A stretch of 64,000 nt of DNA from Lachnospiraceae bacterium (lineage in GTDB: Bacteria > Bacillota > Clostridia > Lachnospirales > Lachnospiraceae). Below the pieces are notes generated by a model, which saw nothing but the letters and a program-made list of their open reading frames with translations, ran no database searches and was not told where the DNA came from. The stretch lies in assembly GCA_902362715.1 (NCBI GenBank), contig CABIXN010000001.1:793673-857672 (forward strand), written 5' to 3'. This document shows positions 238 through 13,352 of this stretch, one piece after another. Position numbers and translations under genes: made by a program. The first letter of the stretch is position 1. Each line of letters starts with the position of its first letter.

Positions 238-1260
238 TTAATTTTCAATTGCAATGTAGTCATCGGGAATTTTTACATTCAGTGTCTGACACATTTCCGA
301 ATTATATTTTTTCGTAAACTTCGGGGCATTCTGGATAGGCATTGTTGAAATATCCTCTTTTCCTTCTAAAATATCCGCCGCCATCTGCCCGGTCTCATAC
401 CCCAGATCATATGCATCCAGACACAAGGTCGCCACGCCGCAGCCTCTGCAGATTGTTTCGCTGCCGGTAAATACAGGTACTTTTGTATCCAGACAAATAT
501 TTTTTATAATACCGGTATTCGCTCCTACCGTATTATCGGTAGGTGTATAAATAACATCCGATTCTTTGGCAGCTTTTGTTACTACCGCCGCTAAATCGTT
601 GCTGTCTGAAAAGGTATATTCCTGACACTGATATCCCATTCCTTCTAAATACTTTGAGATTTCCTCTACCTGGGATTTGGCATTGATTTCTGCTGAGCAA
701 TAAAGGACTCCGATCTTTTTTTCATCCGGAAATAATTCTTTTATCATATCAGCCTGCTGGTCTAAGGGTGAAACATCTGACGTACCGGAGATATTCCCTC
801 CCACCGTACCATCAAACTCTTTCAAATCCAGGGCCAAAGCGTAATCTGTTACACAGGTGCCAAGAATGGGAATGGTATCTGTTCCTGCCGCTGCCGCCTG
901 CAGAGCCGGTGTTCCGTTGGCCATAATCAGGTCCACATCGTTGGATACAAAACTATTAACAATTACCGAACAGGTATTAGAATCACTCTGGGCATTCTGC
1001 ACCTGAATGGACACCTTATCTCCCATTCTGTCTTTCACCGCATCCCGAAACCCTTCTGTGGCGGCATCTAAATCTTCGTGCTGTACAAGCTGACAGACCC
1101 CGATGGTAAATTCAGCGTCATCTTCCGTCTGCTGTTCTGATAATTTTCGCCCTGTCTGATCTGCTTGTTTTTTTGTTCCAGTATTTTCTGAATTTGTGCA
1201 GGCTGATAATCCCATTACCAGTCCTGTCATCAGCAGTAAAGCAATCATTTTTTTCATCAT
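238..1260 (-). CDS. ABC transporter substrate-binding lipoprotein (TrpX/ABC_sub_bind family)
   Basis: A 340-residue secreted lipoprotein. The N-terminus has a charged MMKK start, a hydrophobic core and the lipobox LSAC, followed by a Ser/Thr/Lys-rich linker. The mature part (IGVCQLVQHEDLDAATEGF onward) has the two-lobed layout of the ABC_sub_bind (PF04392) family, whose members bind small ligands such as aromatic amino acids. No permease or ATPase gene sits next to it, so it is an orphan here; a terminator follows directly. GAGAGGAG before the ATG sets the start. Its leader contains the 65-bp structured element and a terminator, suggesting attenuation. The ligand is unknown. Confidence 0.85.
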   Translation of the reverse strand: MMKKMIALLLMTGLVMGLSACTNSENTGTKKQADQTGRKLSEQQTEDDAEFTIGVCQLVQHEDLDAATEGFRDAVKDRMGDKVSIQVQNAQSDSNTCSVIVNSFVSNDVDLIMANGTPALQAAAAGTDTIPILGTCVTDYALALDLKEFDGTVGGNISGTSDVSPLDQQADMIKELFPDEKKIGVLYCSAEINAKSQVEEISKYLEGMGYQCQEYTFSDSNDLAAVVTKAAKESDVIYTPTDNTVGANTGIIKNICLDTKVPVFTGSETICRGCGVATLCLDAYDLGYETGQMAADILEGKEDISTMPIQNAPKFTKKYNSEMCQTLNVKIPDDYIAIEN

Positions 1261-1289: not shown

Positions 1290-1316
1290 AAAATAAAGAA
1301 TGTGCAAAGCACATTC
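1290..1316 (-). terminator. Leader terminator next to structured element copy 1
   Basis: The minus-strand transcript contains GAATGTGC-UUU-GCACAUUC followed by UUUAUUUU. It starts inside the end of the conserved 65-bp element and ends 30 bases before the ATG of the lipoprotein gene, the usual place for an attenuator. Confidence 0.65.
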
Positions 1317-1377
1317 TCCGCCTGCGGCGGGTCGCTTTTGCGACATGACTCCACTCCGCCGCAGTACGATCCACAGC
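1313..1377 (-). promoter_or_regulatory. 65-bp structured leader element, copy 1
   Basis: On the minus strand the element folds as a 9-bp stem CUGCGGCGG/CCGCCGCAG, an 11-base one-sided bulge (AGUGGAGUCAU) and an inner hairpin GUCGC-AAAA-GCGAC. It is 62/65 identical to the copy at 12597-12661, in the same strand, and both copies run straight into an intrinsic terminator whose own stem sequence differs. In this copy an upstream CUCCGC can pair either with GCGGAG inside the element or with GCGGAG just after it, which would allow two alternative folds. A riboswitch or protein-bound attenuator is a reasonable guess. I do not recognise it as a known class. Confidence 0.5.
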
Positions 1378-1450
1378 GGAGCGTTTTTTTGCTCTATAGG
1401 AATCGGTACTTTTCAGCTTTATCACAACACAATATTTCCTATAGAGAAAT

Positions 1451-1479
1451 AAAAACGTTCCCGGAAAAGGAACGTTTTT
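1451..1479. terminator. Intrinsic terminator hairpin
   Basis: AAAAACGTTCC and GGAACGTTTTT pair around a short loop, with U-runs on both strands. It separates the GntP fragment (ends 1791) from the leader of the lipoprotein gene. Between it and the 65-bp element another inverted repeat, CTCTATAGGAA/TTCCTATAGAG (about 1392-1446), is present. The rest of the 1480-1790 stretch shows no gene. Confidence 0.65.
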
Positions 1480-1790
1480 AAATGCATACTCCCCGAAGAG
1501 AATATCATATTTACAGCGGATTCTGCACATCTGCCAAAGCCAAAGTACAGTATCTGCTCACAGCCGTATTGTCGTCTTCTTTTCCTGTCAGTTACCATCC
1601 CAGCCACTTTCAGCTTGCTGATGGTCCTTATAAGTCAAGTTGTTTTTTAAATTGAATATTCCCTGTCAGCATTTGCTTTCAGATTATATTCTTTTATTAT
1701 ATAGAAATCTATTCCTAAAAATCAAGTACAATATTTTAAGATTCTTCTGAAACTCTTTTACGGTTTCATATTCCGGCAAATTGACTGCCG

Positions 1791-2291
1791 TCAGGCAAGA
1801 AAAGGAAGCACTGTTAAAATAATAGCCACAACAAATGATGTAATTGTTGTATTTAAAACAGTCGTAATAAACACATATTTATATGATTTGTTCATTGGAA
1901 CATCCGTTACACTTGTTGCAACGGCAAATCCCGGATTTGTGGGCAGGGTATCAAGGGTCTGGCTGGAAAATACTGCCACCCGGTGCAGAGCATTCATATT
2001 AATTCCCATTTGAGCAAAGGACTCTGACAAATACGGAAGTGTTGCATTTAATCCCGCCGGGCCGGAGCCGGACGCTCCGGTTAAAAGAGCAATGCAGATA
2101 ATCACTTTAAATAATCCCGGTATCTGCATATGTACCAGTCCTTCCGTAATGGAAGGAAATACCGGTGATGCTGCGACCACGGCTCCAAGAGCTCCAAGGG
2201 CTCCTACCTGCAAAAGCAGTTCCGCCGCCTGCTTAGGAACCGGATTTAAAAGCTCCTTTAATCCGCCTCCTCCTTTATTTTTATACGAGAT
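1791..2291 (-). pseudogene. 3' remnant of a GntP-family gluconate/organic acid permease
   Basis: About 166 codons are open from just after a stop at 2292-2294 to the end at 1791. They match the last third of GntP-type H+ symporters: a GGGG linker, then hydrophobic helices, the signature TLDTLPTNPGFAVATS and a final membrane helix VVAIILTVLPFL. A full member has roughly 430-450 residues, so the first two thirds are missing. The break lies only 16 bases from the stop of the upstream URO-D gene, suggesting a deletion. No proper start codon with this reading frame is visible, so it is probably dead. Confidence 0.75.
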
Positions 2292-2307
2292 TTATCCGAT
2301 ATTTGTA

Positions 2308-3297
2308 CTATCTTATATTTCTTCTGCCATAATTCCTTTCCATTTTCATTCCTTCATCTATCATCCATGGCAGTATCTCCTTTTGAATCACCAGGGGATA
2401 TGCTACATAGCTTCCCCCCGGCGCTAAAAGATCATAGGTCCGCCGCACTTCCCTGCGTACCTCCTCCTCTGTTACGCCTTTTTTATCCAGGATTCCCTGA
2501 TTATCAAAGCCTCCGCAGAAGGTAATGCGATGCTGATACTTATCTTTCAGTTCTCTTAATGGATTGGTAATCTGCAGCGGATCAATGGCATCCACTCCCA
2601 TCTCCACAAGCTGATCAAAAATAGGGGCTATATATCCGCAGGAATGATGTTCATAGAGCATCCCCGCTTCATGAGCAGCATCAATCACTTTTTGCAGGTT
2701 ATCCTTAAAAAACTCTTCCCACATATCTACAGACATCAGCATCTGCTCATTGGCTCCATAATCATCATGGGCATTTAAAATGTCCGGCTTCCAGTACTTC
2801 CCGATAATTTTAATACACTCAATTTTGTAATTGCAGATGGCATCCAGCAGTTCTTTGTAGGCTTCCGGTTCTTCATACATGGCTATTAACGCATCTTCAA
2901 ATCCCATTAACTCATGGCTTCGTTCAAATATTCCGTTAATCAGCATGACCATTGTCAATTTGTTCTCACGATCCCAGTTTTTGGTATCCTTTCCGGCCTC
3001 TTTTTCCCAGTCAATCTGTGAAAGATCCGGAAAAGCCACCTGCTCCCGCCATTTTGTAACATCTGTAATTACTTTTTTATCCGGAGTATCAATCACCATG
3101 CTTGCACGCTGCTGTGGAACATATTCCCAGTAAGTTCCAAACCAGTCGTATCCGGTTCCCTCACTTCCATCCGGGTTCACAGGACGTTCTTTCATGGCCG
3201 GAATTAATGTAAAATCAAAATCCGTCAAAAGATTTAATACTTTTCCGATATCTTCATGATCCCTGTAAACCCGCAGTAATTCCTCGTGTCGACTCAC
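2308..3297 (-). CDS. Uroporphyrinogen-decarboxylase-superfamily protein (methyltransferase-like)
   Basis: About 329 residues from a GTG at 3295-3297, chosen because AAAGGAG sits just upstream; an in-frame codon at 3351 lacks one. The fold is that of the URO-D superfamily, which includes the corrinoid methyltransferases MtaA/MtbA. It carries the HSCG motif (HxC zinc-type ligands) near the middle and the segment NAHDDYGANEQMLMS before it. A late cysteine common in MtaA-like enzymes is not evident here, where the end reads GGSYVAYP. True heme enzymes sit among hem genes, which are absent, so methyl transfer is more likely. The substrate is unknown. A LysR gene lies upstream on the same strand. 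Confidence 0.75.
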   Translation of the reverse strand: MSRHEELLRVYRDHEDIGKVLNLLTDFDFTLIPAMKERPVNPDGSEGTGYDWFGTYWEYVPQQRASMVIDTPDKKVITDVTKWREQVAFPDLSQIDWEKEAGKDTKNWDRENKLTMVMLINGIFERSHELMGFEDALIAMYEEPEAYKELLDAICNYKIECIKIIGKYWKPDILNAHDDYGANEQMLMSVDMWEEFFKDNLQKVIDAAHEAGMLYEHHSCGYIAPIFDQLVEMGVDAIDPLQITNPLRELKDKYQHRITFCGGFDNQGILDKKGVTEEEVRREVRRTYDLLAPGGSYVAYPLVIQKEILPWMIDEGMKMERNYGRRNIR

Positions 3298-3447
3298 TTC
3301 ATATCTCCTTTCTGATTTGTTAAATTTATTATAAAAGCAATATATATGCATGTAAAATATAAAAAAGCCGGAAATCTATATCATTTTTGATATAATCTTT
3401 CCGACTATCATAGTATGATTCGCTTTTATAGAATAATTCTTAAGCTG

Positions 3448-4323
3448 TCACCCCATCCGTTTTTGAATCTCTGTAATCAGAACGCTGACTGCCACATTCT
3501 GCGTTTCCGATTTCCATCCAAGCATAACTGTGTGTCTGGTTTCCATTGGAATAAACAACAGCTTTTCATCAAACACATATCTGGTCCATTCATCACAAAT
3601 CAAAACCCCCTGACCCAATTCCACACTGTTAATGGCTGATTCCAGACTATTCACATATTTTATCTGCGGAATAAAGCCGTAAGGTTCACAAAATGTCCGG
3701 ATCTGCGTTCCAAGAGCCATGGTCCCGTCCTCATCCATAACAAAAAACTGTTCTTTTTTGAAATCTCTTGGAACAGGTGTCCCATTTTTACACCATTGAT
3801 CTTTCCTGCATAAAATCCCTCTCACAATTTCCGTTACTCTTTCTTTGCGGATCCCCCGTCTCTGATTTAAAATCCCCTCAATTCCGAAAACAAGATCTAT
3901 TTCATCTCTGTCAAGCTTCTCCAAAAGCTCTCTGCGATTGCAGGCTTCCATACGTATATCCATATTCGGATACTCTTTCTTAAAATCCCAGACCAGTTCA
4001 TACAACAGCTCTGAGACCTTCCAGCCTTCCATGTATCCGATCCTGATATTTCCAAGACGATTGGAATGAAGATTTCTGGCGTGAAAAGAAACCTCCCGGT
4101 ATGCCAGCTGTGTTCTTCGAAAAAAATCATAATATTCTTTTCCCGCCTCCGTTAAGCACACCTGCTTTCCAGTACGTTCAAACAGCTGCACCCCCAGCTC
4201 CGCTTCCAGTTTTAAAACGCTGCGGCTTAAATTGGGCTGGGATACATAGCCCTTTTCCGCTGCTTTACTGAAATTTTTTTCTTCCGCTACCAGCAGAAAA
4301 TTTTTAATCTGTGACTCGTTCAT
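3448..4323 (-). CDS. LysR-family transcriptional regulator
   Basis: A 291-residue regulator. The first 60 residues form the winged helix-turn-helix (FLLVAEEKNFSKAAEKGYVS ... ERTGKQVCLTEAG) and the rest is a periplasmic-binding-like effector domain. CAGGAG sits before the ATG. It lies upstream of the URO-D-type gene on the same strand with about 150 bases between, so it could control that gene. The ligand cannot be read from the sequence. Confidence 0.9.
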   Translation of the reverse strand: MNESQIKNFLLVAEEKNFSKAAEKGYVSQPNLSRSVLKLEAELGVQLFERTGKQVCLTEAGKEYYDFFRRTQLAYREVSFHARNLHSNRLGNIRIGYMEGWKVSELLYELVWDFKKEYPNMDIRMEACNRRELLEKLDRDEIDLVFGIEGILNQRRGIRKERVTEIVRGILCRKDQWCKNGTPVPRDFKKEQFFVMDEDGTMALGTQIRTFCEPYGFIPQIKYVNSLESAINSVELGQGVLICDEWTRYVFDEKLLFIPMETRHTVMLGWKSETQNVAVSVLITEIQKRMG

Positions 4324-4346
4324 CCTGTTCTCCTGACAGCAGCCTT

Positions 4347-4841
4347 CTATCTGCTTTTACACCTTTCTGACAGCTCAATTGCCAGAACAGCCATTATATA
4401 AGGGAGCAGACCATGGCTCGTTTCTAGTTCCAGCGTATATATCCGCATGTCTGCTCCTTTAACTGAGACACCCGCCAGCTTTTTCTGATTCTCATCAAAT
4501 ATGGTATACCCTCCCGGAAATGCCGCCTGCTTTCTCTTTTCAATGGTCCATATGACATTATCTGAAGCAAACTGAAGCTTCCAGAAAGGAAACTCCTTTC
4601 GGACTGTTCCTAACAAAACCTCTCCTGCCCAAAGCAGAAATGTCTGATCTTCCTTTCTTCCCTCTTTGATGGATAAATCTTCTTTCACTGATCCCAAAAA
4701 TATATTCTGACTGTCATATATTTCCAAACATTCTTTTATTACAGACTGCTCTCTGGCCACATAAAGCAATAGTCCTGTATCGTCATAAACGTCACAGGTA
4801 ACAAAGCCGGAAATAAGTCTCGACGTTAGAAACAATTTCAT
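4347..4841 (-). CDS. Hypothetical protein, LURP-one/scramblase-like beta fold
   Basis: A 164-residue soluble protein made mostly of alternating short beta-strand-like segments (GFVTCDVYDDTGLLLYV, WAGEVLLGTVRKEFPFWKLQF) with no signal peptide or membrane helix. The pattern of repeated strands with conserved Trp and Gly recalls the LURP-one-related (DUF567) and scramblase fold, but I recognise it only weakly. It lies 23 bases upstream of the LysR gene on the same strand and may be cotranscribed with it. Function unknown. Confidence 0.6.
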   Translation of the reverse strand: MKLFLTSRLISGFVTCDVYDDTGLLLYVAREQSVIKECLEIYDSQNIFLGSVKEDLSIKEGRKEDQTFLLWAGEVLLGTVRKEFPFWKLQFASDNVIWTIEKRKQAAFPGGYTIFDENQKKLAGVSVKGADMRIYTLELETSHGLLPYIMAVLAIELSERCKSR

Positions 4842-5295
4842 GTTTTATCCTCACTCTTACTTACGTATAGCTCTAAACCTTTTAAAGTCCTGCCACCGGA
4901 CCAAAATATTCAGATACTGCAAAAATTCTACTTTTTTCAAACAAAAAAATTATATCGAAAAAAAAGATAACTATCAATGGGATTTTTTATGTAATCTCAA
5001 AGACGTTCAATAACTTTTTATTTTATTTCCCTAAAAAAGAAAAAGGGACCGCTGTCATACAGGTGATCTCTCATCTGCTTTGCAGCAGTCCTTCTTCTGT
5101 TCATTACCCTGCCCCCGTATATAGAACATATTTAGATAGGATGGGACTTATTTTCTCAGAGACTTTTCCGAAAGCTATATCATGGATGCTGAGGTTCTTA
5201 CTATCTGCGGCTGCAGAAAAGAGATGACGGTGAAGTTTAAATTAGAAATGTAGATCTACATTTATTTTAACACGATACCTCTTGTTTGTCATCTA
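4842..5295. other. Intergenic stretch without a convincing gene
   Basis: This 454-base stretch holds a perfect 18-bp palindrome, AAATGTAGATCTACATTT, at 5246-5263, some 33 bases past the MATE stop. It may be a weak terminator or an operator. A 37-codon plus-strand frame ending at the TAG within the palindrome (… SESYIMDAEVLTICGCRK …) looks protein-like but has no matching start or length, so it may be a gene remnant. Nothing else stands out. Confidence 0.4.
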
Positions 5296-6639
5296 TTAAT
5301 TCATATTTTTAGTTATTAGTTTTATTTTTCTCTGATAGATCAGATAGTAAACAGCACCCAATACTGCCACAACTAATTCCGTAATGGGGCAGGCCAGCCA
5401 TACCCCGGTCATCCCACAGGCTTTTTCCAGTACAACAGCCACTGGAATAATTAAAACAATTCCTCGAAGAACAGATAAAATATGCGCAGGCACCGCCCTC
5501 TCTACAGAAGTGAAAAACGTTGCAAGAACAATATTGTATCCCATAAACAAAGAAGCTGTAAAATACAGTTTTAATCCCTTAACCGCAATTTCCTGCAACC
5601 CCAAAAGATGCTCACTGTTAAAAGCAGATACAATAGGCTGGGCAAAGATTACGAATAAACTATATACCAGACAGGATATCACAGCCATAGTAATCATGGC
5701 ATATCTTCGCACAGCAAACAGCTGGGCGTTTTTTTGTTTTCCATGAAAACTGCTGATCAGAGGCTGAATCCCCTGGGCAATTCCTGTATATACAGCAGCC
5801 AGCACTAAAGACAGATTGGCAATGACACCGTAAGCTGCCACCCCGGTATTTCCTTCCAGCTTTAAAATCATCGTGTTCAGTGTAATCATAACAATACCCG
5901 ATGACAGCTGAGCCACAAGGGAGGGAAATCCCAGAGCCGCCGTCTGCCCTACAATAACGCCGCTGATTTTTGTTTTCTTAAAATGAAAGGTATTTTTCTT
6001 TCGAATCCAGTGGGGAAGCATCATAACCATACTGATCACCGGCGAAAGACCCGTAGCAAAAACAGCGCCGAAAATCCCCATTTCCATAGGAAATATAAAA
6101 ATATAATCCAGAACAATATTGGCAAAACTTCCGGTGAGCATAGCAGCCATGGACAGCTGAGGACTTTCATCGTTTCTTACAAAGCAAAGAAAAACATCGT
6201 TGAAAATAAAAGCCGGCGCAAAAATTAACAGCCATCTTAGATACGTCTCTGTCATCTGTAATGTATCTGCATCTGCTCCAAGAAGACCGGCCAGATCACC
6301 AGCCAGAAAAAGGCCTGCCAGAAAAAATACTGCTGAAGCTGCAGCGGCAAAATAAATGCTGTTTGTATAAATCCGGTGAACCTCTTCCTTTTTTCTCTGG
6401 CTTTTGCAGATTGAAAACCTTGTAGCTGCTCCCATTCCAACCATCAGACCGGTCCCGTGAATAAAATTGTAGACAGGAATAGCAAGATTTAATGCTGTCA
6501 GCCCATCAGCCCCCAATCCCTTAGAAACAAAAAAAGTATCTGCCAGAATGTAGCAGGATACTCCCAGTGTTCCAAACACACTGAATATGGTATAGCGGAT
6601 AAATTCCGAAAAACAAGATTTCTGATTCATATTTCTCAC
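5296..6639 (-). CDS. MATE-family multidrug/guanidine exporter (MepA-like)
   Basis: A 447-residue membrane protein with twelve predicted helices in the twofold MATE layout; the first half holds GTLGVSCYILADTFFVSKGL and the second half the repeated equivalent. MATE pumps couple export of cationic compounds to Na+ or H+ entry. Directly upstream lies a leader that fits the guanidine-IV (mepA) riboswitch, which in other Clostridia switches on such pumps when guanidine accumulates. The likely cargo is therefore guanidinium or related cations; this is inference from the leader. AGGAAGTGAG precedes the ATG. Confidence 0.9.
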   Translation of the reverse strand: MRNMNQKSCFSEFIRYTIFSVFGTLGVSCYILADTFFVSKGLGADGLTALNLAIPVYNFIHGTGLMVGMGAATRFSICKSQRKKEEVHRIYTNSIYFAAAASAVFFLAGLFLAGDLAGLLGADADTLQMTETYLRWLLIFAPAFIFNDVFLCFVRNDESPQLSMAAMLTGSFANIVLDYIFIFPMEMGIFGAVFATGLSPVISMVMMLPHWIRKKNTFHFKKTKISGVIVGQTAALGFPSLVAQLSSGIVMITLNTMILKLEGNTGVAAYGVIANLSLVLAAVYTGIAQGIQPLISSFHGKQKNAQLFAVRRYAMITMAVISCLVYSLFVIFAQPIVSAFNSEHLLGLQEIAVKGLKLYFTASLFMGYNIVLATFFTSVERAVPAHILSVLRGIVLIIPVAVVLEKACGMTGVWLACPITELVVAVLGAVYYLIYQRKIKLITKNMN

Positions 6640-6691
6640 TTCCTGTATGTATTTTATAAAAGAAAACTGGCCGCAGAAGCCATCCTTTATG

Positions 6692-6785
6692 AAAAAAAGC
6701 GCCAGATATTCCTATCTTCAAAGGCCTAACGATAGAAACACTGACGCAAAAACTGATTACCCGGCGGCAACAGCTGTCATTGATA
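6692..6785 (-). promoter_or_regulatory. Candidate guanidine-IV (mepA motif) riboswitch
   Basis: The minus-strand leader contains two hairpins. The first, 6753-6773, has the stem CUG-UUGCC with loop GCC and the G-rich return GGGUAA. The second, 6699-6747, has the outer stem GCGUCAG/CUGGCGC and inner stem UUUCUAUC/GAUAGGAA. It ends in seven U, so it is a terminator. Loop one (GCC) can pair with GGC in loop two, the loop-loop contact expected for this class. Position before a MATE gene fits the known distribution. The class assignment is from memory of the motif, not from a search. Confidence 0.7.
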
Positions 6786-6826
6786 TTTTTTAAACTTTAG
6801 CATACGAATTCTAAAAAGTCAATCTG

Positions 6827-6908
6827 TTCAAGTCTTGCCCTCGCAAGACTTGGTGCGCGATTTGGGTCAGCTTTGCTGACAATATTCTATTCCGAATTGC
6901 TGCACATC
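6827..6908. repeat. 82-bp structured repeat, copy A
   Basis: It matches 45730-45811 at 76 of 82 positions with no gaps. It contains a 10-bp hairpin (CAAGTCTTGC/GCAAGACTTG, loop CCTC), an inner hairpin TCAGC-TTT-GCTGA, a stem ATTTGG/CCGAAT around it and an outer GTGC/GCAC. In one stem the two copies differ by a paired change (T.G here, G-C in the other copy). It lies between phnX and the MATE leader. Its role is unknown. Confidence 0.7.
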
Positions 6909-6920
6909 CTCGCGGAGCGC

Positions 6921-7006
6921 ATATCAGATGAGGGATTGACACACGCCACTGATACTTACTTGTTACTCACCGCCTATAGAGGCGGGAGTTATCCCTCATC
7001 TGATAT
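6921..7006 (-). terminator. Large inverted repeat overlapping the phnX stop
   Basis: ATATCAGATGAGGGAT at 6921-6936 and its exact complement at 6991-7006 are 54 bases apart; the right arm covers the last codons of phnX. Between them is a small hairpin CCGCC-TATAGA-GGCGG. There is no clear U-run, so it may be a 3' stabiliser, a terminator with a branched fold, or part of the neighbouring repeat. Confidence 0.45.
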
Positions 7007-7769
7007 AATCCAGTACTCCACGGATATCTCTTACTACTGCATCTGCTCCGGCATCTTTAAATTTCCTCTTAGCTGCAGCCAGCCGTTCTTCTTTTTCTGC
7101 TTCTGTCAAAGCTTCAAACTCATCCTGATGAAGTCCCATAACTGAGCTTCCTTCCAGTATTCCAATGGTAAACATTCCAGCATTTTTTCCTTCCAGAATG
7201 TCAGATACCGTATCCCCTGCCTTGATGGCCTTTGCTGCTGAGGATACCTGCAGTGCTTCCAGATTTTTAAAAATCATGTAAGGATAAGGACGTCCCATTC
7301 CATTTACAGCATCCGGGCTGAACCAGCAGTCAGGTGCATAGCCAAGCTCTTCTGCCTTTGGTACCACAACATTCATCATAACATCGGTATACCCGGTTGT
7401 AGAACCAATTTTAATTCCCATTTCTCTGATTTTGTTTACGGTTTCTATTACATAGGGTTTTGGAGCCGCAAACTGATCCAGAATTTTTAATAAAGCCGGC
7501 TCGAACCGCGCATAAAGAGCATCTGCATCGGAATCCTGAGGCGCCTTCCCGTACTTTTTTGTCCAGCATTCCTTAATTCTTGGCATTTCAAGCATTGTCC
7601 GGATGTGATCCCATTTTAACATACCCATTGGCTCTCTGACTTCTTCCATGGAAGGTTCCATACCTGCCTCTGTAAATACTTCCATAAATGCCTGTACCGG
7701 TGCAAAACAGCCGTAATCTACAGTTGTTCCTGCCCAGTCAAAAATGACTGCTTCTATCTTTTTGCTCAT
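6996..7769 (-). CDS. phnX: Phosphonoacetaldehyde hydrolase
   Basis: A 257-residue HAD-superfamily enzyme that splits phosphonoacetaldehyde into acetaldehyde and phosphate. The N-terminal motif FDWAGTTVDYG gives the nucleophile Asp11, and Lys52 in MGMLKWDH matches the Schiff-base lysine of this family. TTGYT and GDTVSDI provide the other HAD motifs. Length is normal. It is the last gene of the 2-aminoethylphosphonate operon, 75 bases after phnW, which makes its substrate. CAGGAG precedes the ATG. Confidence 0.96.
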   Translation of the reverse strand: MSKKIEAVIFDWAGTTVDYGCFAPVQAFMEVFTEAGMEPSMEEVREPMGMLKWDHIRTMLEMPRIKECWTKKYGKAPQDSDADALYARFEPALLKILDQFAAPKPYVIETVNKIREMGIKIGSTTGYTDVMMNVVVPKAEELGYAPDCWFSPDAVNGMGRPYPYMIFKNLEALQVSSAAKAIKAGDTVSDILEGKNAGMFTIGILEGSSVMGLHQDEFEALTEAEKEERLAAAKRKFKDAGADAVVRDIRGVLDYIR

Positions 7770-7844
7770 TGTTCATTCTCCTGTCTGATTTTTTATAATA
7801 TTACACTACATAGAATTTTTCTTACCTGTTCTGTACACAGCTCA

Positions 7845-8945
7845 CTATTCTGCTTTCCTGCTTTCGAAAAATTCTTTAAATATCTCACACAATTTTTCAA
7901 TGTCTTCTTTATAAATCTCACCGATATTTCCAATCCGGAACGTATCTGCATCCGTAACTTTTCCCGGATAAATAGCATAGCCTCTGCTTTTTACATATTC
8001 ATACATCTCCGGAAAGGAAAAACTGCTTTGTTCCGGATAAAAGAAGGTTGTAATAATGGGACCCTGGTATTCTCCACCGATATAAGAGCGGATACCCATT
8101 TCCTTCATTTTCTGAATCAGAAGATGGTTATTATCATAATACCGTTTTGACCTGGCAGGGATTCCCCCCTCTTCTTCTAATTCTTCCAGAGCTTTTGCAA
8201 AAGCCAGCACCGTATGCGTTGGAGATGTAAAACGCCACTTTCCGTCTTTTTCCATAGTCTTCCACTGATCATAAAGATCTAATGACAGGCTTCTTGCCTT
8301 CCCTTCACTCTCCATTAATTTCTTGCGATTACAGATAATAAAGGAAAATCCCGGTACTCCCTGGATACATTTGTTGGCACTGCTGATAAGAAAATCAATA
8401 CCCAGGCCTCCCACTTCAATATCTACCCCGGCAAAGCTGGACATGGCATCTACAATCATTGTTTTTCCCGCCGCTTTTACTTCCTTTGTAATAGAAGCAA
8501 TGTCATTTAAAATTCCGGATGTGGTCTCACTGTGAACCATTGCCACATGGGTAATGGCCGGATCTTCTGCAAGAATCTCAGCTGTTTTTTCTGCTGAAGG
8601 AACCTGATCATATACTTCCTGGTATACAGTATAATTAATTTTTGCGTGCTGGCAAATACTGATCATACGTTCCCCGTATGCCCCGTTAACAATAATCAGC
8701 AGTTTATCATTTTGGCCAATTACACTGGTTAAAACAGACTCTACCCCAAAGCTTCCGCTTCCCTGCATTAAGACTGCAGTGTATTCTTCCTCTGATACAT
8801 GAGCAAGTTTTAATAATTCTTTTCGAATTTTCTGTGTAATCTGCTTATAATCATCATCCCAGGTACAATGATCTACCAGCATTTCTTTTTTTACACTGTG
8901 GGATGTGGTCAGCGGACCAGGTGTCAGTAATTTGTAATGAATCAT
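7845..8945 (-). CDS. phnW: 2-aminoethylphosphonate:pyruvate aminotransferase
   Basis: A 366-residue class V PLP aminotransferase that moves the amino group of 2-aminoethylphosphonate to pyruvate, giving phosphonoacetaldehyde and alanine. LLTPGPLTTS at the start, Asp166 in VDAMSS and the PLP lysine Lys192 in SSANKCIQGVPGF are all present. Length is typical. Together with phnX downstream and the importer upstream it forms a complete pathway that releases phosphate, nitrogen and a two-carbon unit from this phosphonate. AAAGAGG precedes the ATG. Confidence 0.96.
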   Translation of the reverse strand: MIHYKLLTPGPLTTSHSVKKEMLVDHCTWDDDYKQITQKIRKELLKLAHVSEEEYTAVLMQGSGSFGVESVLTSVIGQNDKLLIIVNGAYGERMISICQHAKINYTVYQEVYDQVPSAEKTAEILAEDPAITHVAMVHSETTSGILNDIASITKEVKAAGKTMIVDAMSSFAGVDIEVGGLGIDFLISSANKCIQGVPGFSFIICNRKKLMESEGKARSLSLDLYDQWKTMEKDGKWRFTSPTHTVLAFAKALEELEEEGGIPARSKRYYDNNHLLIQKMKEMGIRSYIGGEYQGPIITTFFYPEQSSFSFPEMYEYVKSRGYAIYPGKVTDADTFRIGNIGEIYKEDIEKLCEIFKEFFESRKAE

Positions 8946-8980
8946 GTTTTTTACCTCTTTTTCTCTATGAATCTAAAAAT

Positions 8981-11623
8981 TTATTGTTTACAATTTTCGG
9001 ACAACTGCTGATGCTTTTTCAGCAGTTCTGCGGTCAGGGGTTCCTGAAATGTTTTCGGATAGGCTGACTGGAAAATTTTATCCACAGTTTCACCCTGATA
9101 TAATGGATTCGGATATATTTCTTTCAGTTTTTCTCTTCCCTTTTTAACAATACATTCCGCCATCTCCATAGCTTTTTTGCTTCTTTCGTCTCCTTTATCT
9201 ACAACCGCCACGGATTCCGTCAGGGAAAAATTTCCTTCTATTGGATCTATATAGTCAACGGGCAGTCCGTCTTTTTTATCCGCCACCGCCTGGTGCCTTA
9301 ATCCAAAGCCAATGGCGACTTCACCGGAACGCACTTTTTTTAGAGGGCCTGAGCCGGAATCTTCCATATGCGGTCCGGCATTCTTATAAATCCCGGCGAG
9401 TACTTCCTTCGCCCCATCCTCCCCGTATTCACTGACCAGGGCCTGAATCATCAGCCAGGCAGTAGAGGAACTCTTTATATCTGTCACAGATATTTCTCCT
9501 GCATAAACCGGATCTGCCAGATCTTTTAAGGATTCCGGAACGGGAAGATTTTTTTCTTCCATTACTTTTGTGTTAAAAATGATGACGCCTTCCTGTGAAG
9601 TAACAGGCCGGTAAAAATCCGGCGCCTCACTTAACGTTTCGGCTTCAAAGGTAAGATCTGCAAACATCTGATTCTGCTGCTGGGCGCTCTCCAGGTAAAA
9701 GGAACTCATTGTTACCAGGTCGGCCTCAATATTTTTTCCTTCCGCTAAGAGCTTTCCTCCAAGCTCTGAGGTTCCAAAGGTCTGGAAAATATACTGATCC
9801 TGATACCCGTTCTGGTCTAGTGTCTCTTTCATCGCTTCCACAGCCTCATCGTCTGCATTGGAATAAATAACTACTTTCTGGCTGCTTTGTGAGCCTCCCG
9901 GAAAAACTGCAAAGCCTATGACTGCTGCTGCCAGAATACAGACTGCTGCGATTCCGGCTGCCTTTGTCCTCTTCTTTTTTTCTTTTCCGGTGCTTGTTCC
10001 TGCTTTTCTTCCCCGTTCTGCCAGCATCCGGAACAAAAGCTTTGCCACAATATTTGTCACTAAGATACAGAGAGACAAAACAAAGATCTCATTAAATTCT
10101 GCAAAATGCTGCAGCTCTTTTATTTTTGCCGTAATCACCATGGTTCTGGCCCCTGAAATAAAGATCACGGCACTGACGGTTACCATGGCATTTACAAAAT
10201 AGTAGCTGAACACTTCAATCAGTGTTGGCAGCGCATTAGGTGTAACAACCCGCAAGATCGTTTTCATCCAGTTATCACCCATAAGCATGGCTGTTGTCTC
10301 CCAGGAACTGTTCATTTTCTCCAGAGAGTTTTTCATCATAAGATACGGTGTGGAAAAATAATGCACAATATTACAGATAATAATCAGCGCAAAGGTATTT
10401 TGCAGCGGGCTGCCGGAAAACATCAGCATAAAAGCAATACCAATCACCATGCCCGGAATGGTATTGGTAACAAGGGCAATGCTTTCTATCATCTGTTTAT
10501 ATTTCTTTGGCATTCTGCTTCTGGCTGTAATTAATGCTGCACCGTACGCTGCCGCAGAACCGATCATTGCTGTAAGGGCCGCCACAATCACCGAATTTCT
10601 AAATACCCCGAACAAGGTACTGTCCCCAAAGACATTTTTTACATGTTTCAGGGTAAAGGTCATTTCATATGGCCATTCACTGACAAACGGTACCAGAAAG
10701 ATCACAGAGAATACAATCAGGATGACAAAAATAATGCAAACCGAGGAAACCCCGCAGATTCCGTCTCTGATATGATTTTTCTGATTTTCCACAGGAGTGA
10801 TTTTGCTGTAGCGGACATTGTATTTTTCCAGTATATGCAATAAAGCAATGCTGACAATGGAGGGCACAAGCATCACCAGAGCCACAACCGCCCCGTTATT
10901 AAAATTGGGAAGACTTCCAAGCATTTCGTCATATAAAACGGAAGCCACCACATCATACTGTCCGCCCACAGAGGCTGGAATGCCAAAGTCTGTAAAGGCC
11001 AGAAAGAAGCACTGGATAAAGGATGCCGCCAGCGTCCCTGTCAGCGGGCGCAAAATCGTAATTGCAAATGTCTGCAGACCTTTATCTCCCATTACCCGGG
11101 ATACCACCATAAATTTTTTATCAATGTAACCCATGGTATTGTGAATCAGCAGAAACGATACCGGAAGCGTATAGATCACATACCCCAGCAGCAGGCCGCC
11201 AAAACCATAAATATCAAATATTTGTGTTCCCAGTATTCTGGTTATAAGCCCCTGTCTGCCAAAGGAATAAATAATGGCAAAACCATATGTAATGGTAGGC
11301 AGCAGCATGGGGAGCACTGCCAATACTTGAATCATTTTCTTGAAAAATCCGGGAATATTCGTATAGTGAAGGGTATAGGCAAGAAGAAAGGCAAGAAACG
11401 TGGTAATTGCCGCACTGCTTCCTGCCACTTTAAAACTGTTTCCCACCGCATTCCAAAATCCGCTCCCGGAAAACACCTGTGCATAATGCACCAGAATATT
11501 TCCGGTATCACTTTGAAAGGATTTCAGTAAAAGAGTTACTATCGGAACCGCCAAAAACCATATAAATAAAACGAGAACCGCTGTAAAAATCACTTTAACT
11601 TCCAAGTTCTTTTTCTGTTTCAT
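8981..11623 (-). CDS. 2-AEP ABC importer: double permease fused to substrate-binding domain
   Basis: About 880 residues from the ATG at 11621-11623 (GTGGGG upstream); a GTG at 11633-11635 abutting the ATPase stop is the alternative. Residues about 10-560 are two BPD-type permease halves, each with several helices and an EAA-like loop (SRVMGDKGLQ and TAMLMGDNWMK). A short basic linker (KEKKKRTK) and one more helix (AAGIAAVCILAAAVIGFAV) tether a C-terminal iron/AEP-type binding domain (about 585-884, VVIYSNADDEAVEAM). Importers of this kind normally have a separate lipoprotein. A stationary fused receptor is unusual. It sits between the ATPase and phnW, so 2-aminoethylphosphonate is the likely cargo. 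Confidence 0.9.
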   Translation of the reverse strand: MKQKKNLEVKVIFTAVLVLFIWFLAVPIVTLLLKSFQSDTGNILVHYAQVFSGSGFWNAVGNSFKVAGSSAAITTFLAFLLAYTLHYTNIPGFFKKMIQVLAVLPMLLPTITYGFAIIYSFGRQGLITRILGTQIFDIYGFGGLLLGYVIYTLPVSFLLIHNTMGYIDKKFMVVSRVMGDKGLQTFAITILRPLTGTLAASFIQCFFLAFTDFGIPASVGGQYDVVASVLYDEMLGSLPNFNNGAVVALVMLVPSIVSIALLHILEKYNVRYSKITPVENQKNHIRDGICGVSSVCIIFVILIVFSVIFLVPFVSEWPYEMTFTLKHVKNVFGDSTLFGVFRNSVIVAALTAMIGSAAAYGAALITARSRMPKKYKQMIESIALVTNTIPGMVIGIAFMLMFSGSPLQNTFALIIICNIVHYFSTPYLMMKNSLEKMNSSWETTAMLMGDNWMKTILRVVTPNALPTLIEVFSYYFVNAMVTVSAVIFISGARTMVITAKIKELQHFAEFNEIFVLSLCILVTNIVAKLLFRMLAERGRKAGTSTGKEKKKRTKAAGIAAVCILAAAVIGFAVFPGGSQSSQKVVIYSNADDEAVEAMKETLDQNGYQDQYIFQTFGTSELGGKLLAEGKNIEADLVTMSSFYLESAQQQNQMFADLTFEAETLSEAPDFYRPVTSQEGVIIFNTKVMEEKNLPVPESLKDLADPVYAGEISVTDIKSSSTAWLMIQALVSEYGEDGAKEVLAGIYKNAGPHMEDSGSGPLKKVRSGEVAIGFGLRHQAVADKKDGLPVDYIDPIEGNFSLTESVAVVDKGDERSKKAMEMAECIVKKGREKLKEIYPNPLYQGETVDKIFQSAYPKTFQEPLTAELLKKHQQLSENCKQ

Positions 11624-11635
11624 ATTCCCCACCAC

Positions 11636-12388
11636 TTATGCCGTCTGACAGTGAAACAGTGAGAAAATATTGTTTCTCTTAATTTCCAGCTGATTTAGTA
11701 TAAACTCACGGATAAAAGAATTATCGGGCCGGCTGATAATCTCTTCAGGTTTTGCATATTGTGAAATTTTTCCCTGATTGATAATCAGTACCCGGTCAGA
11801 TAAGGTTAACGCCTCTTCCGGATCATGGGTTACGATAATGGTTGTCAGATGAAATTCTTTGGCAATGGTTTTGATCCGGTCTTTGATGGATTCCTTGATG
11901 ACACCGTCTAAAGCGCTTAAAGGCTCATCCAGCAGCAGAATTTTGGGTTTCATCACCATAGTTCTTGCAATTGCAACTCTTTGTTTCTGCCCGCCGGAAA
12001 GCTGGGCAATCCCTTTGTCTAGATGTTCCCGAAGCCCCAGCAGATCAATAAGTTCATCCACTTCTTCTTTTGTAGAAATTCCGGGCTTATTTTTTAATCC
12101 GTAAATAATATTCTGATAAGCGTTGAGGTTTGGGAATAAGGCATAATCCTGAAATACAATATTAAATCCCCGCTGTTCCATAGGTACATCTGTCAGATCT
12201 TCTCCGTGATAAATAAGCCTGCCGCTGTCAATATCCGTAATACCAAGAATGAGATTTAACAGTGTCGTCTTGCCGCTTCCGGAAGGACCCAGAATTGAAA
12301 CAATCTCTCCGTCCTCCACATCCAGACTGATATCATCTAAAATCACGTTTCCGTTATAAGACTTTTTAATATTTTTTAATTCCAGCAT
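11636..12388 (-). CDS. 2-AEP ABC importer ATP-binding protein (PhnT-like)
   Basis: A 250-residue ABC ATPase with Walker A GPSGSGKTT, Q-loop FQDYALFPN, signature LSGGQKQRV, Walker B ILLLDEPLSALD and the switch His in VTHDPEEALT. It is of the iron/spermidine/phosphonate importer type. It starts the operon ATPase, permease-receptor, phnW, phnX; its stop codon touches the first possible start of the permease. GAAGGAGC precedes the ATG. About 180 bases upstream lies the second copy of the 65-bp structured element with a terminator. Confidence 0.93.
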   Translation of the reverse strand: MLELKNIKKSYNGNVILDDISLDVEDGEIVSILGPSGSGKTTLLNLILGITDIDSGRLIYHGEDLTDVPMEQRGFNIVFQDYALFPNLNAYQNIIYGLKNKPGISTKEEVDELIDLLGLREHLDKGIAQLSGGQKQRVAIARTMVMKPKILLLDEPLSALDGVIKESIKDRIKTIAKEFHLTTIIVTHDPEEALTLSDRVLIINQGKISQYAKPEEIISRPDNSFIREFILNQLEIKRNNIFSLFHCQTA

Positions 12389-12572
12389 TTAAAAGCTCCT
12401 TCCCTGTCTCTTACCGATGCTTCCATTGCACATCAGCTTTTTACGTTCTATATCTGCTTAACATATTATGAATTATAAAAAATACAAAAGAACGCTTCTA
12501 TCATGCTTCTATAAAATTTTTGTGAATCTTTCGTAAAGCTTGCGGCACAAATGTTAAATCCCAAAGTATCAT

Positions 12573-12600
12573 AAAAAAGAATCCTGCCACAGCAGGATTC
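12573..12600 (-). terminator. Terminator next to structured element copy 2
   Basis: The minus-strand RNA has GAAUCCUGC-UGUG-GCAGGAUUC followed by six U. It starts within the end of the 65-bp element, exactly as in copy 1, but its stem sequence is unrelated to that of copy 1. Confidence 0.75.
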
Positions 12601-12661
12601 TCCGTCTGCGGCGGGTCGCTTTTGCGACATGACTCCACTCCGCCGCAGTGCCATCCACAGC
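12597..12661 (-). promoter_or_regulatory. 65-bp structured element, copy 2
   Basis: 62/65 identical to 1313-1377 in the same strand, with the same bulged stem and GUCGC-AAAA-GCGAC hairpin. The few differences fall outside the paired core. It lies between the end of the nickel/peptide-type ABC operon and the start of the phosphonate operon, 209 bases before the latter's ATG. It may be an attenuator for the phosphonate genes or a small RNA. Confidence 0.5.
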
Positions 12662-12713
12662 AAAAAAGTGATGCAAAAACAAATGAGTTTCCATCTGTAT
12701 TGCATCACTTTTT
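12662..12713 (-). terminator. Terminator of the nickel/peptide-type ABC operon
   Basis: AAAAAAGTGATGCAA and TTGCATCACTTTTT pair across a short AT-rich loop, and the minus-strand RNA ends in six U. It lies 28 bases past the stop of the last gene of the operon. Confidence 0.75.
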
Positions 12714-12740
12714 CATCTTAATTATATCTAACCTTTGTTA

Positions 12741-13352
12741 TTACCTTTGCTTGTCAAGCTCCACCTGTCTGGTGCAGATCTGATTTAGCAGCTGTCTGTT
12801 ATGACTCACTGCAATCAACCCAATCTGCCTTTCCTTTACTTCCTTTAAAAGGAAACCCCAGATCTGGCTCTGAGTGATTAAGTCAAGCATTGTTGTAATT
12901 TCGTCTGCCAGCAAAAATTTGGTTCCCTCTCCCAGGGCCCTGGCAATGCAGAACCTCTGCAGTTCTCCTCCGGAAAGCTCTGACGGGAAACGATTCAGCC
13001 AGTCTTTTTCTATTCCAAGAGCCTTTATCATACGTTCCTCTATCTGATCCCCTTCTTCCAGTACATCCCGCATTCGAAATCTTGGATTCACCGAAAGCTC
13101 CGGGTGCTGCCAGATCATCTGAACAGGACAATAGCTCCCATAAGAAGACAGCGTTTTGCCGTCCAGCAGAATTTCCCCCTGCTCCGGCTTTAAATAACCG
13201 GAAAGTAATTTGCACAATGTAGTTTTTCCGTATCCGCTGGGAGCCGTTAGCCCTACACGTTCTGAACTGTCTGCTGTAAAGCAGAAGTTATCCAGTATCA
13301 TTCTTCCCTTTTTGGAATACTGATAAGAAATATTTTTAATTTCAAGTTTCAT
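12741..13352 (-). CDS. ABC importer ATP-binding protein (DppF/NikE-like)
   Basis: A short 203-residue ABC ATPase: Walker A APSGYGKTT, Q-loop WQHPELSVNP, signature LSGGELQRF, Walker B FLLADEITTML and switch His in VSHNRQ. Within the signature region the Walker B ends in EITTMLD, as in oligopeptide/nickel importers. It lacks the C-terminal oligopeptide domain present in its partner, which is normal for NikE-type subunits. Last gene of a five-gene operon; a terminator follows. Confidence 0.9.
   Translation of the reverse strand: MKLEIKNISYQYSKKGRMILDNFCFTADSSERVGLTAPSGYGKTTLCKLLSGYLKPEQGEILLDGKTLSSYGSYCPVQMIWQHPELSVNPRFRMRDVLEEGDQIEERMIKALGIEKDWLNRFPSELSGGELQRFCIARALGEGTKFLLADEITTMLDLITQSQIWGFLLKEVKERQIGLIAVSHNRQLLNQICTRQVELDKQR

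What the first reader, a model, noticed from the sequence alone, without database searches (positions are those of the whole stretch)
1290..12713. A 65-bp structured RNA-like element occurs twice, each time fused to a terminator before ABC-transporter genes
Copies at 1313-1377 and 12597-12661 agree at 62 of 65 positions, lie in the same strand and fold alike: a 9-bp GC-rich stem, an 11-base one-sided bulge and a GUCGC-AAAA-GCGAC hairpin. Each runs straight into an intrinsic terminator whose stem sequence is not conserved, which is the pattern of a riboswitch or attenuator: conserved sensing part, free expression platform. Both lie upstream of ABC-import genes (orphan lipoprotein; phosphonate importer). 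I do not recognise the class. It could also be a dispersed mobile repeat or an sRNA tail.
Basis: partly seen in the sequence, partly recalled or inferred. Interest (0 to 1): 0.75.

Follow-up and report, generated by a model that had tools for sequence, protein, structure and literature searches.

The report
Terminator-docked structured repeat of gut bacteria
The two matching pieces look like copies of a widespread hairpin-forming DNA repeat of gut Lachnospiraceae that tends to sit just behind the transcription stop signals of unrelated genes, so they are very probably not a sensor switch for transporter genes.

Summary
In detail: two minus-strand copies agree at 62 of 65 positions and each runs into a terminator-like hairpin. 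The riboswitch reading fails as a general account. The 65 bp belong to a unit of about 130 bp: upstream terminator, AT-rich palindrome, mini-hairpin, bulged hairpin core, own terminator. Copies occur in 64 of 200 Lachnospiraceae genomes and number 0-71 per genome within one genus. All 26 modelled pairs show compensatory changes. Placement follows the upstream gene: 175 of 222 scorable copies lie behind a same-strand gene, 58 of them between convergent genes. A terminator precedes 140 of 251 copies, against 18 of 251 random positions. Of 30 downstream genes none has an ABC family hit. Orthologous intergenic regions without the element exist. I read it as a modular, terminator-docked interspersed repeat, comparable in kind to pneumococcal BOX/SPRITE. 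No Rfam family matched it. The mobilising enzyme is unknown; Y1 transposase and reverse transcriptase families do not track copy number. A 3'-end function remains possible. A third, divergent copy lies at 6828-6908.

The parts
1296..1372 (-). copy 1: bulged-hairpin core plus its own terminator hairpin
   Evidence: R1 85.0 bits, E 4.5e-18
1373..1390 (-). copy 1: A-run and CGC-TCC-GC mini-hairpin
   Evidence: sequence; same module in many relatives
1391..1447 (-). copy 1: AT-rich AGGAAA/TTCCT palindrome with expanded loop
   Evidence: inverted arms found; same module in relatives
1450..1480 (-). copy 1: upstream intrinsic terminator (T1)
   Evidence: 13-bp stem and T-run
238..1260 (-). gene after copy 1: ABC substrate-binding lipoprotein
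   Evidence: PF04392
12577..12656 (-). copy 2: bulged-hairpin core plus its own terminator hairpin
   Evidence: R1 84.7 bits, E 5.2e-18
12662..12714 (-). copy 2: upstream hairpin with T-run (T1), directly abutting the core; no AGGAAA palindrome
   Evidence: sequence and fold; not called by the simple terminator scan
12741..13352 (-). gene before copy 2: ABC ATPase
   Evidence: PF00005
11636..12388 (-). gene after copy 2: ABC ATPase next to the permease/binding-protein gene of an importer
   Evidence: PF00005
6828..6908 (-). copy 3, divergent: same architecture with different stems
   Evidence: R1 31.4 bits, E 2.1e-5
6911..7006 (-). copy 3: palindrome overlapping the stop codon of the upstream gene, then the mini-hairpin GCGCTCCGCG; no T-run seen
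   Evidence: sequence
6996..7769 (-). gene before copy 3: HAD hydrolase (phosphonatase-like by neighbourhood, inferred)
   Evidence: PF00702

Best explanation
The copies belong to a modular, interspersed, hairpin-forming repeat of Lachnospiraceae that settles immediately 3' of intrinsic terminators, mostly in the sense orientation of the upstream gene, and as a rule carries its own terminator at its 3' end. Shown: unit anatomy, covariation, copy number, genome-specific homogenisation, enrichment behind terminators, orientation, and presence/absence between related species. Inferred: that it spreads as a small non-autonomous mobile or recombining element; that the spot behind a terminator is a place where it costs the host little; and that its own terminator keeps transcription closed. 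The enzyme that copies it is unknown.
For: Copies: 12 of 12 genomes reached through element-bearing loci, 1-15 exact-pattern copies each; 64 of 200 family genomes; 26 of 29 genomes of one genus, 0-71 copies. The loop sequence is shared in 230 of 302 within-genome pairs against 145 of 2399 between-genome pairs of the 74 copies. Changes on both sides in 26 of 26 pairs in two alignments; covariation score not reached in 500 shuffles. Orientation in tandem gaps 117 with and 19 against transcription; 58 convergent and 28 divergent, while gaps without copies run 26 convergent and 51 divergent. Upstream terminator in 140 of 251 against 21 (opposite strand), 4 (shuffled), 18 (random position). Orthologous sites without it: L215 against 3 relatives with a homologous terminator; L252 against G001 and five further genomes; L230 and L226 against G234/G235; R1 finds no whole copy in 26 loci covering these sites, only the half copy at a G235 contig end that belongs to the filled L252 site. 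Tandem units in L029.
Against: No transposition was seen, no target-site duplication defined and no helper gene found: G001 (36 copies) and G221 (26) have neither Y1_Tnp nor RVT_1 matches, G212 (0 copies) has 5 and 17. L230 and L226 could be deletions in G234/G235: in L230 the T-run is missing too, in L226 a possible remnant is left. In L252 the terminator stems also differ between G234 and G001. No terminator was found by the descriptor before 111 of 251 copies, and 28 plus 19 of 222 copies do not follow a same-strand gene. Stem covariation shows constraint on folding, which a purely inert repeat would not need.
Confidence: 0.7

Rival explanations
1. A riboswitch or attenuator: the conserved hairpin senses something and the following terminator is the expression platform for the downstream gene.
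For: Conserved core with variable terminator stem; 145 of 222 copies precede a same-strand gene; copy 1 ends about 30 bp before the lipoprotein start; a promoter-like site lies at 1725-1696, though 2 such sites in the region against 1.6 expected is chance level; copy 1 has a competing fold.
Against: 58 of 222 copies lie between convergent genes; the 30 downstream genes tested share no function and none has an ABC family hit; 0 of 12 orthologous starts of the phosphonate-type importer carry it, a test weakened because only 3 of those genomes are known carriers; copy number runs from 0 to 71 within a genus.
Confidence: 0.06
2. A functional 3' element or read-through small RNA: RNA polymerase that escapes the gene's terminator makes a short structured RNA closed by the second terminator, which protects the 3' end, insulates neighbours or binds a protein through the conserved purine-rich bulge.
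For: Sense orientation behind terminators, and an own terminator in 190 of 251 copies; stems change wholesale while bulge and architecture stay; the listing of PMC8144298 (start of abstract seen) describes sRNAs between dual terminators of E. coli rRNA operons.
Against: Absent at orthologous loci; no copy in 3 of 29 genomes of the genus; the G-U against A-C test for a transcribed strand is inconclusive and leans the other way, 38 G-U against 72 A-C cells in the core; no expression data.
Confidence: 0.2
3. A known transposition system in disguise: REP/RAYT single-strand transposition or group II intron machinery acting in trans on a hairpin element.
For: Hairpins in intergenic 3' regions resemble REPs; group IIC introns are said to insert behind terminators (recalled; only a search listing seen).
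Against: Copy number does not track Y1_Tnp or RVT_1 matches.
Confidence: 0.04

Closest known systems
Pneumococcal BOX, RUP and SPRITE repeats (PMC3049150, passages seen)
   Same: Small structured repeats, typically under 200 bp, BOX modular; over-represented between convergent genes, few relations to gene function; SPRITE resembles a terminator
   Different: Other sequence and host; here the unit sits directly behind an existing terminator; no terminal inverted repeats or target duplications were seen by eye
Bacillus cereus bcr1 (passages in PMC3446304 and PMC3733652)
   Same: Dispersed intergenic element called MITE-like, often part of UTRs
   Different: bcr1 is filed among MITEs with inverted termini; none were seen here
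REP sequences (PMC12306157 and PMC3733652, passages seen)
   Same: Intergenic palindromes
   Different: Longer unit of several hairpins; no tracking with the Y1 transposase family in the genus tested
Riboswitch plus terminator platform
   Same: Conserved structured core followed by a terminator with free stem sequence
   Different: Placement and downstream genes do not fit

Membership tests
riboswitch/attenuator | lies in the 5' leader of the controlled gene | tested here: not met
   58 of 222 copies convergent; the link is with the upstream gene. Not excluded for copy 1 alone
riboswitch/attenuator | downstream genes share a function | tested here: not met
   0 of 30 with an ABC hit; only tRNA synthetases and the S4 domain recur, twice each; 3 of 30 have no Pfam hit
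riboswitch/attenuator | conserved at orthologous leaders | tested here: inconclusive
   0 of 12 phosphonate-type importer starts, but only 3 of the 12 genomes are known to carry copies elsewhere
riboswitch/attenuator | ligand changes structure | not testable with these tools
   needs bench work
Rfam families | reaches a gathering score | tested here: not met
   0 matches in the window; 3 matches in 20 loci, at other coordinates than the element: FMN, SAM, tRNA
small interspersed structured repeat (BOX/SPRITE kind) | many similar intergenic copies per genome | tested here: met
   up to 71 copies
small interspersed structured repeat (BOX/SPRITE kind) | presence/absence at orthologous sites | tested here: met
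MITE | terminal inverted repeats and target-site duplication | tested here: inconclusive
   none seen by eye at four junctions; flanks diverged
REP/RAYT | resident Y1 transposase | tested here: not met
   G001, G220, G221 carry 36, 71, 26 copies and no Y1_Tnp match; assemblies may be incomplete
group II intron or its derivative | intron ribozyme or RT | tested here: not met
   no Rfam match at the element; no RVT_1 match in G001 or G221

The most novel reading that the evidence does not exclude
A new class of terminator-homing miniature element: a non-autonomous hairpin element that recognises the stem/T-run junction of intrinsic terminators, inserts there in sense orientation, brings its own terminator, and keeps an 11-base bulge as recognition site while swapping all its stems; moved in trans by an undescribed enzyme.
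Probability: 0.3. Interest if true: 0.7.

Novelty: new variant of a known kind. Interest (0 to 1): 0.48.

Why it matters
It removes a false riboswitch lead and gives annotators a model for an abundant repeat of common gut bacteria that can break assemblies and be mistaken for leader RNAs, sRNAs or small ORFs. If the terminator homing is real, it offers a natural example of safe-site targeting and a search for its unknown mobilising enzyme.

Tried and rejected
Peptide reading (ATG in the bulge, MSxKRPAAGGES): rejected, because loops of 3 or 5 instead of 4 bases shift the frame in some copies and no conserved stop was seen; the Roseburia plasmid ORF that starts in the element is probably over-annotation. 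Strand test by G-U against A-C mismatches: inconclusive, partly because the search pattern fixed one arm. CsrA-like GGA motif in the bulge: considered; GGA is not kept in many G001 and G214 copies. Y1 transposase and reverse transcriptase as movers: no tracking. Two viral scans gave 4 and 3 stretches that I judge to be chance. The early context count of 72 copies was replaced because small spurious ORFs crossed the element. L253 was not used as an empty site: the gap there is larger than the element.

One search used 273 non-redundant of 306 hits, of which 39 lacked a flank and 12 lay in ORFs of 900 nt or more. Pfam tests used the 30 nearest of 52 downstream genes and 20 of 53 upstream genes, the latter picked without a rule.

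Full report
Observation. A 25-base core occurs nowhere else in the window at up to 3 mismatches and in none of 100 shuffles. Each runs into a terminator-like hairpin of unrelated stem. Rfam gave no match at gathering score in the window and 12 matches far below gathering score in 1200-1700, the best at E 0.49.

The real unit. Six were left out as chance; of the 112 kept, 108 have at least 7 of 9 pairs of the outer stem. Titles of the kept records name Lachnospiraceae, other Clostridia, or only a bacterium. Similar DNA also came from 12 human-faecal contigs labelled Bacteriophage sp., 11 of them at E 1e-6 or better, and from a Roseburia plasmid. Not every copy has every module: the simple test for both AGGAAA and TTTCC arms succeeded in 159 of 251 copies, and many of the misses it printed still show the palindrome by eye. 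Copy 1 has every module, copy 2 lacks the AGGAAA palindrome. The covariance model finds a third, divergent copy at 6828-6908, behind the stop of a HAD hydrolase gene.

Structure. On alignment A2 the core barely varies because the search pattern fixed it. Copies found by the model R1 are less biased: in A4 (70 distinct of 71) and A3 (73 distinct of 110) all 26 pairs have changes on both sides, paired cells are 95.4 and 95.9 percent, and covariation scores of 0.265 and 0.411 exceed all 500 shuffles and every slid version. These alignments are fitted to the structure, so both controls flatter them. Whole stems are exchanged, for example CGCAAATGC with GCGACGCATTTGCG, while a purine-rich bulge (AAAGGAAAT-like) and the layout persist. 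The single-sequence fold of copy 1 prefers another helix, not seen as best fold in the ten other copies folded.

Copy number and homogenisation. Exact-pattern copies: 1-15 in 12 of 12 genomes reached through element-bearing loci. With R1: 64 of 200 family genomes, only 23 candidates scored per genome, so counts are lower bounds; in one genus 26 of 29 genomes, from 0 to 71 copies. The inner loop is genome-specific: 230 of 302 within-genome pairs share it against 145 of 2399 between genomes (from the 74 copies). The window's two copies share loop AAAA and bulge GTGGAGTC, and no copy held from elsewhere matches them closely.

Placement. With a simple ORF caller of my own, 222 of 273 non-redundant copies could be scored: 117 between same-strand genes and in their sense, 19 in antisense, 58 between convergent genes, 28 between divergent genes. 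Other gaps of 200 bp or more in the same loci: 87 tandem, 26 convergent, 51 divergent. So the link is with the 3' end of the upstream gene. A terminator found by a strict descriptor lies within 190 nt upstream in 140 of 251 copies, against 21 on the opposite strand, 4 after shuffling and 18 at random positions; 190 of 251 end in a terminator of their own.

Gene functions. The 30 nearest downstream genes (of 52 listed) gave 27 with Pfam families, none of them an ABC transporter family; tRNA synthetases and the S4 domain recur, twice each. Twenty upstream genes (of 53) gave one ABC ATPase and one ECF transporter component. The window's copy-2 locus was compared with 397 family genomes: of the 20 loci fetched, 8 are the 3' end of the peptide-importer operon and 12 the start of the phosphonate-type importer; 0 of 20 carry the element. 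This is weaker than it looks: only 6 of the 20 genomes are known to carry copies elsewhere (G038, G152, G160, G281, G285, G353).

Sites without it. (a) L215 of G214 has the element right behind a terminator whose homologue stands without it in G212, G217 and G219. (b) L252 of G234 has about 144 bp more than G001 between flanks of 83 and 91 percent identity; G213, G225, G217, G212 and G219 lack it too, and by eye G214 has a related but different unit there; G235 shares the filled state, its contigs breaking in the element; the terminator stems of G234 and G001 differ. (c) L230 of G001 has 237 bp (element plus a second palindrome module) between flanks that are adjacent in G234 and G235. (d) L226 of G001 has the unit behind a terminator homologous to that of G234/G235, which lack it. 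R1 at E 0.1 finds no copy in the loci without it; of the 26 loci given, the one that matches is L317, the G235 half of the filled site in (b). In (c) the T-run is gone as well, and in (d) a few bases may be a remnant, so loss in G234/G235 is as likely as gain in G001. Gain is best argued for (b), then (a).

Who moves it. Y1_Tnp matches occur in 18 and RVT_1 matches in 24 of 29 genomes of the genus, but G001 and G221 have neither and carry 36 and 26 copies, while G212 has 5 and 17 and no copy. A resident enzyme of these classes is therefore not required, as far as these assemblies are complete. I found no autonomous partner, but did not search for one beyond these two families.

Mechanism. Most likely (0.7): a modular repeat that spreads by an unknown route and is tolerated behind terminators, where its sense orientation and own terminator keep transcription closed. 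Anatomy, numbers, docking, orientation and presence/absence are shown; spread and tolerance are inferred. The strongest rival (0.2) is a useful 3' element or read-through RNA, because folding is under clear constraint. The riboswitch idea keeps 0.06, mainly for local co-option at copy 1, whose terminator lies about 30 bp before the lipoprotein gene.

Known kinds. Pneumococcal BOX, RUP and SPRITE repeats show similar statistics: enrichment between convergent genes and few relations to function (passages of PMC3049150). bcr1 of Bacillus cereus is another relative in kind (passages). Surveys of stem-loop families (PMC2267715, passages) and REPs (PMC3733652, PMC12306157, passages) did not show this one in the passages seen. 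Nine paper searches listed nothing that I recognised as a description of it, but subscription journals and supplements were not searched; it could be among the 3161 motifs of PMC8040213 (passages).

Noticed in passing
6828-6908: Third, divergent copy of the element (E 2.1e-5), preceded by a long palindrome that overlaps the stop codon of the HAD hydrolase gene.
   Followed up: partly
1340-1390: Copy 1 can form a competing 13-bp helix between the mini-hairpin region and the 5' arm of the core.
   Followed up: no
8981-11635: One 884-aa reading frame joins two permease stretches and a solute-binding domain of an ABC importer.
   Followed up: no
1791-2213: Short ORF upstream of copy 1 without Pfam match, possibly a truncated membrane-protein gene.
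   Followed up: no
L006-L017: Unannotated human-faecal contigs filed as Bacteriophage sp. carry the repeat, so some may be bacterial DNA.
   Followed up: no
L005:3045-3392: A hypothetical protein of the Roseburia plasmid is annotated from inside the element, probably an over-annotation.
   Followed up: no
L237:209-403: Two units 116 bp apart with stems unlike the main type.
   Followed up: no
G235 C104 and C37 (L309, L317): Assembly contigs end inside the element, so the repeat can break draft genomes.
   Followed up: no
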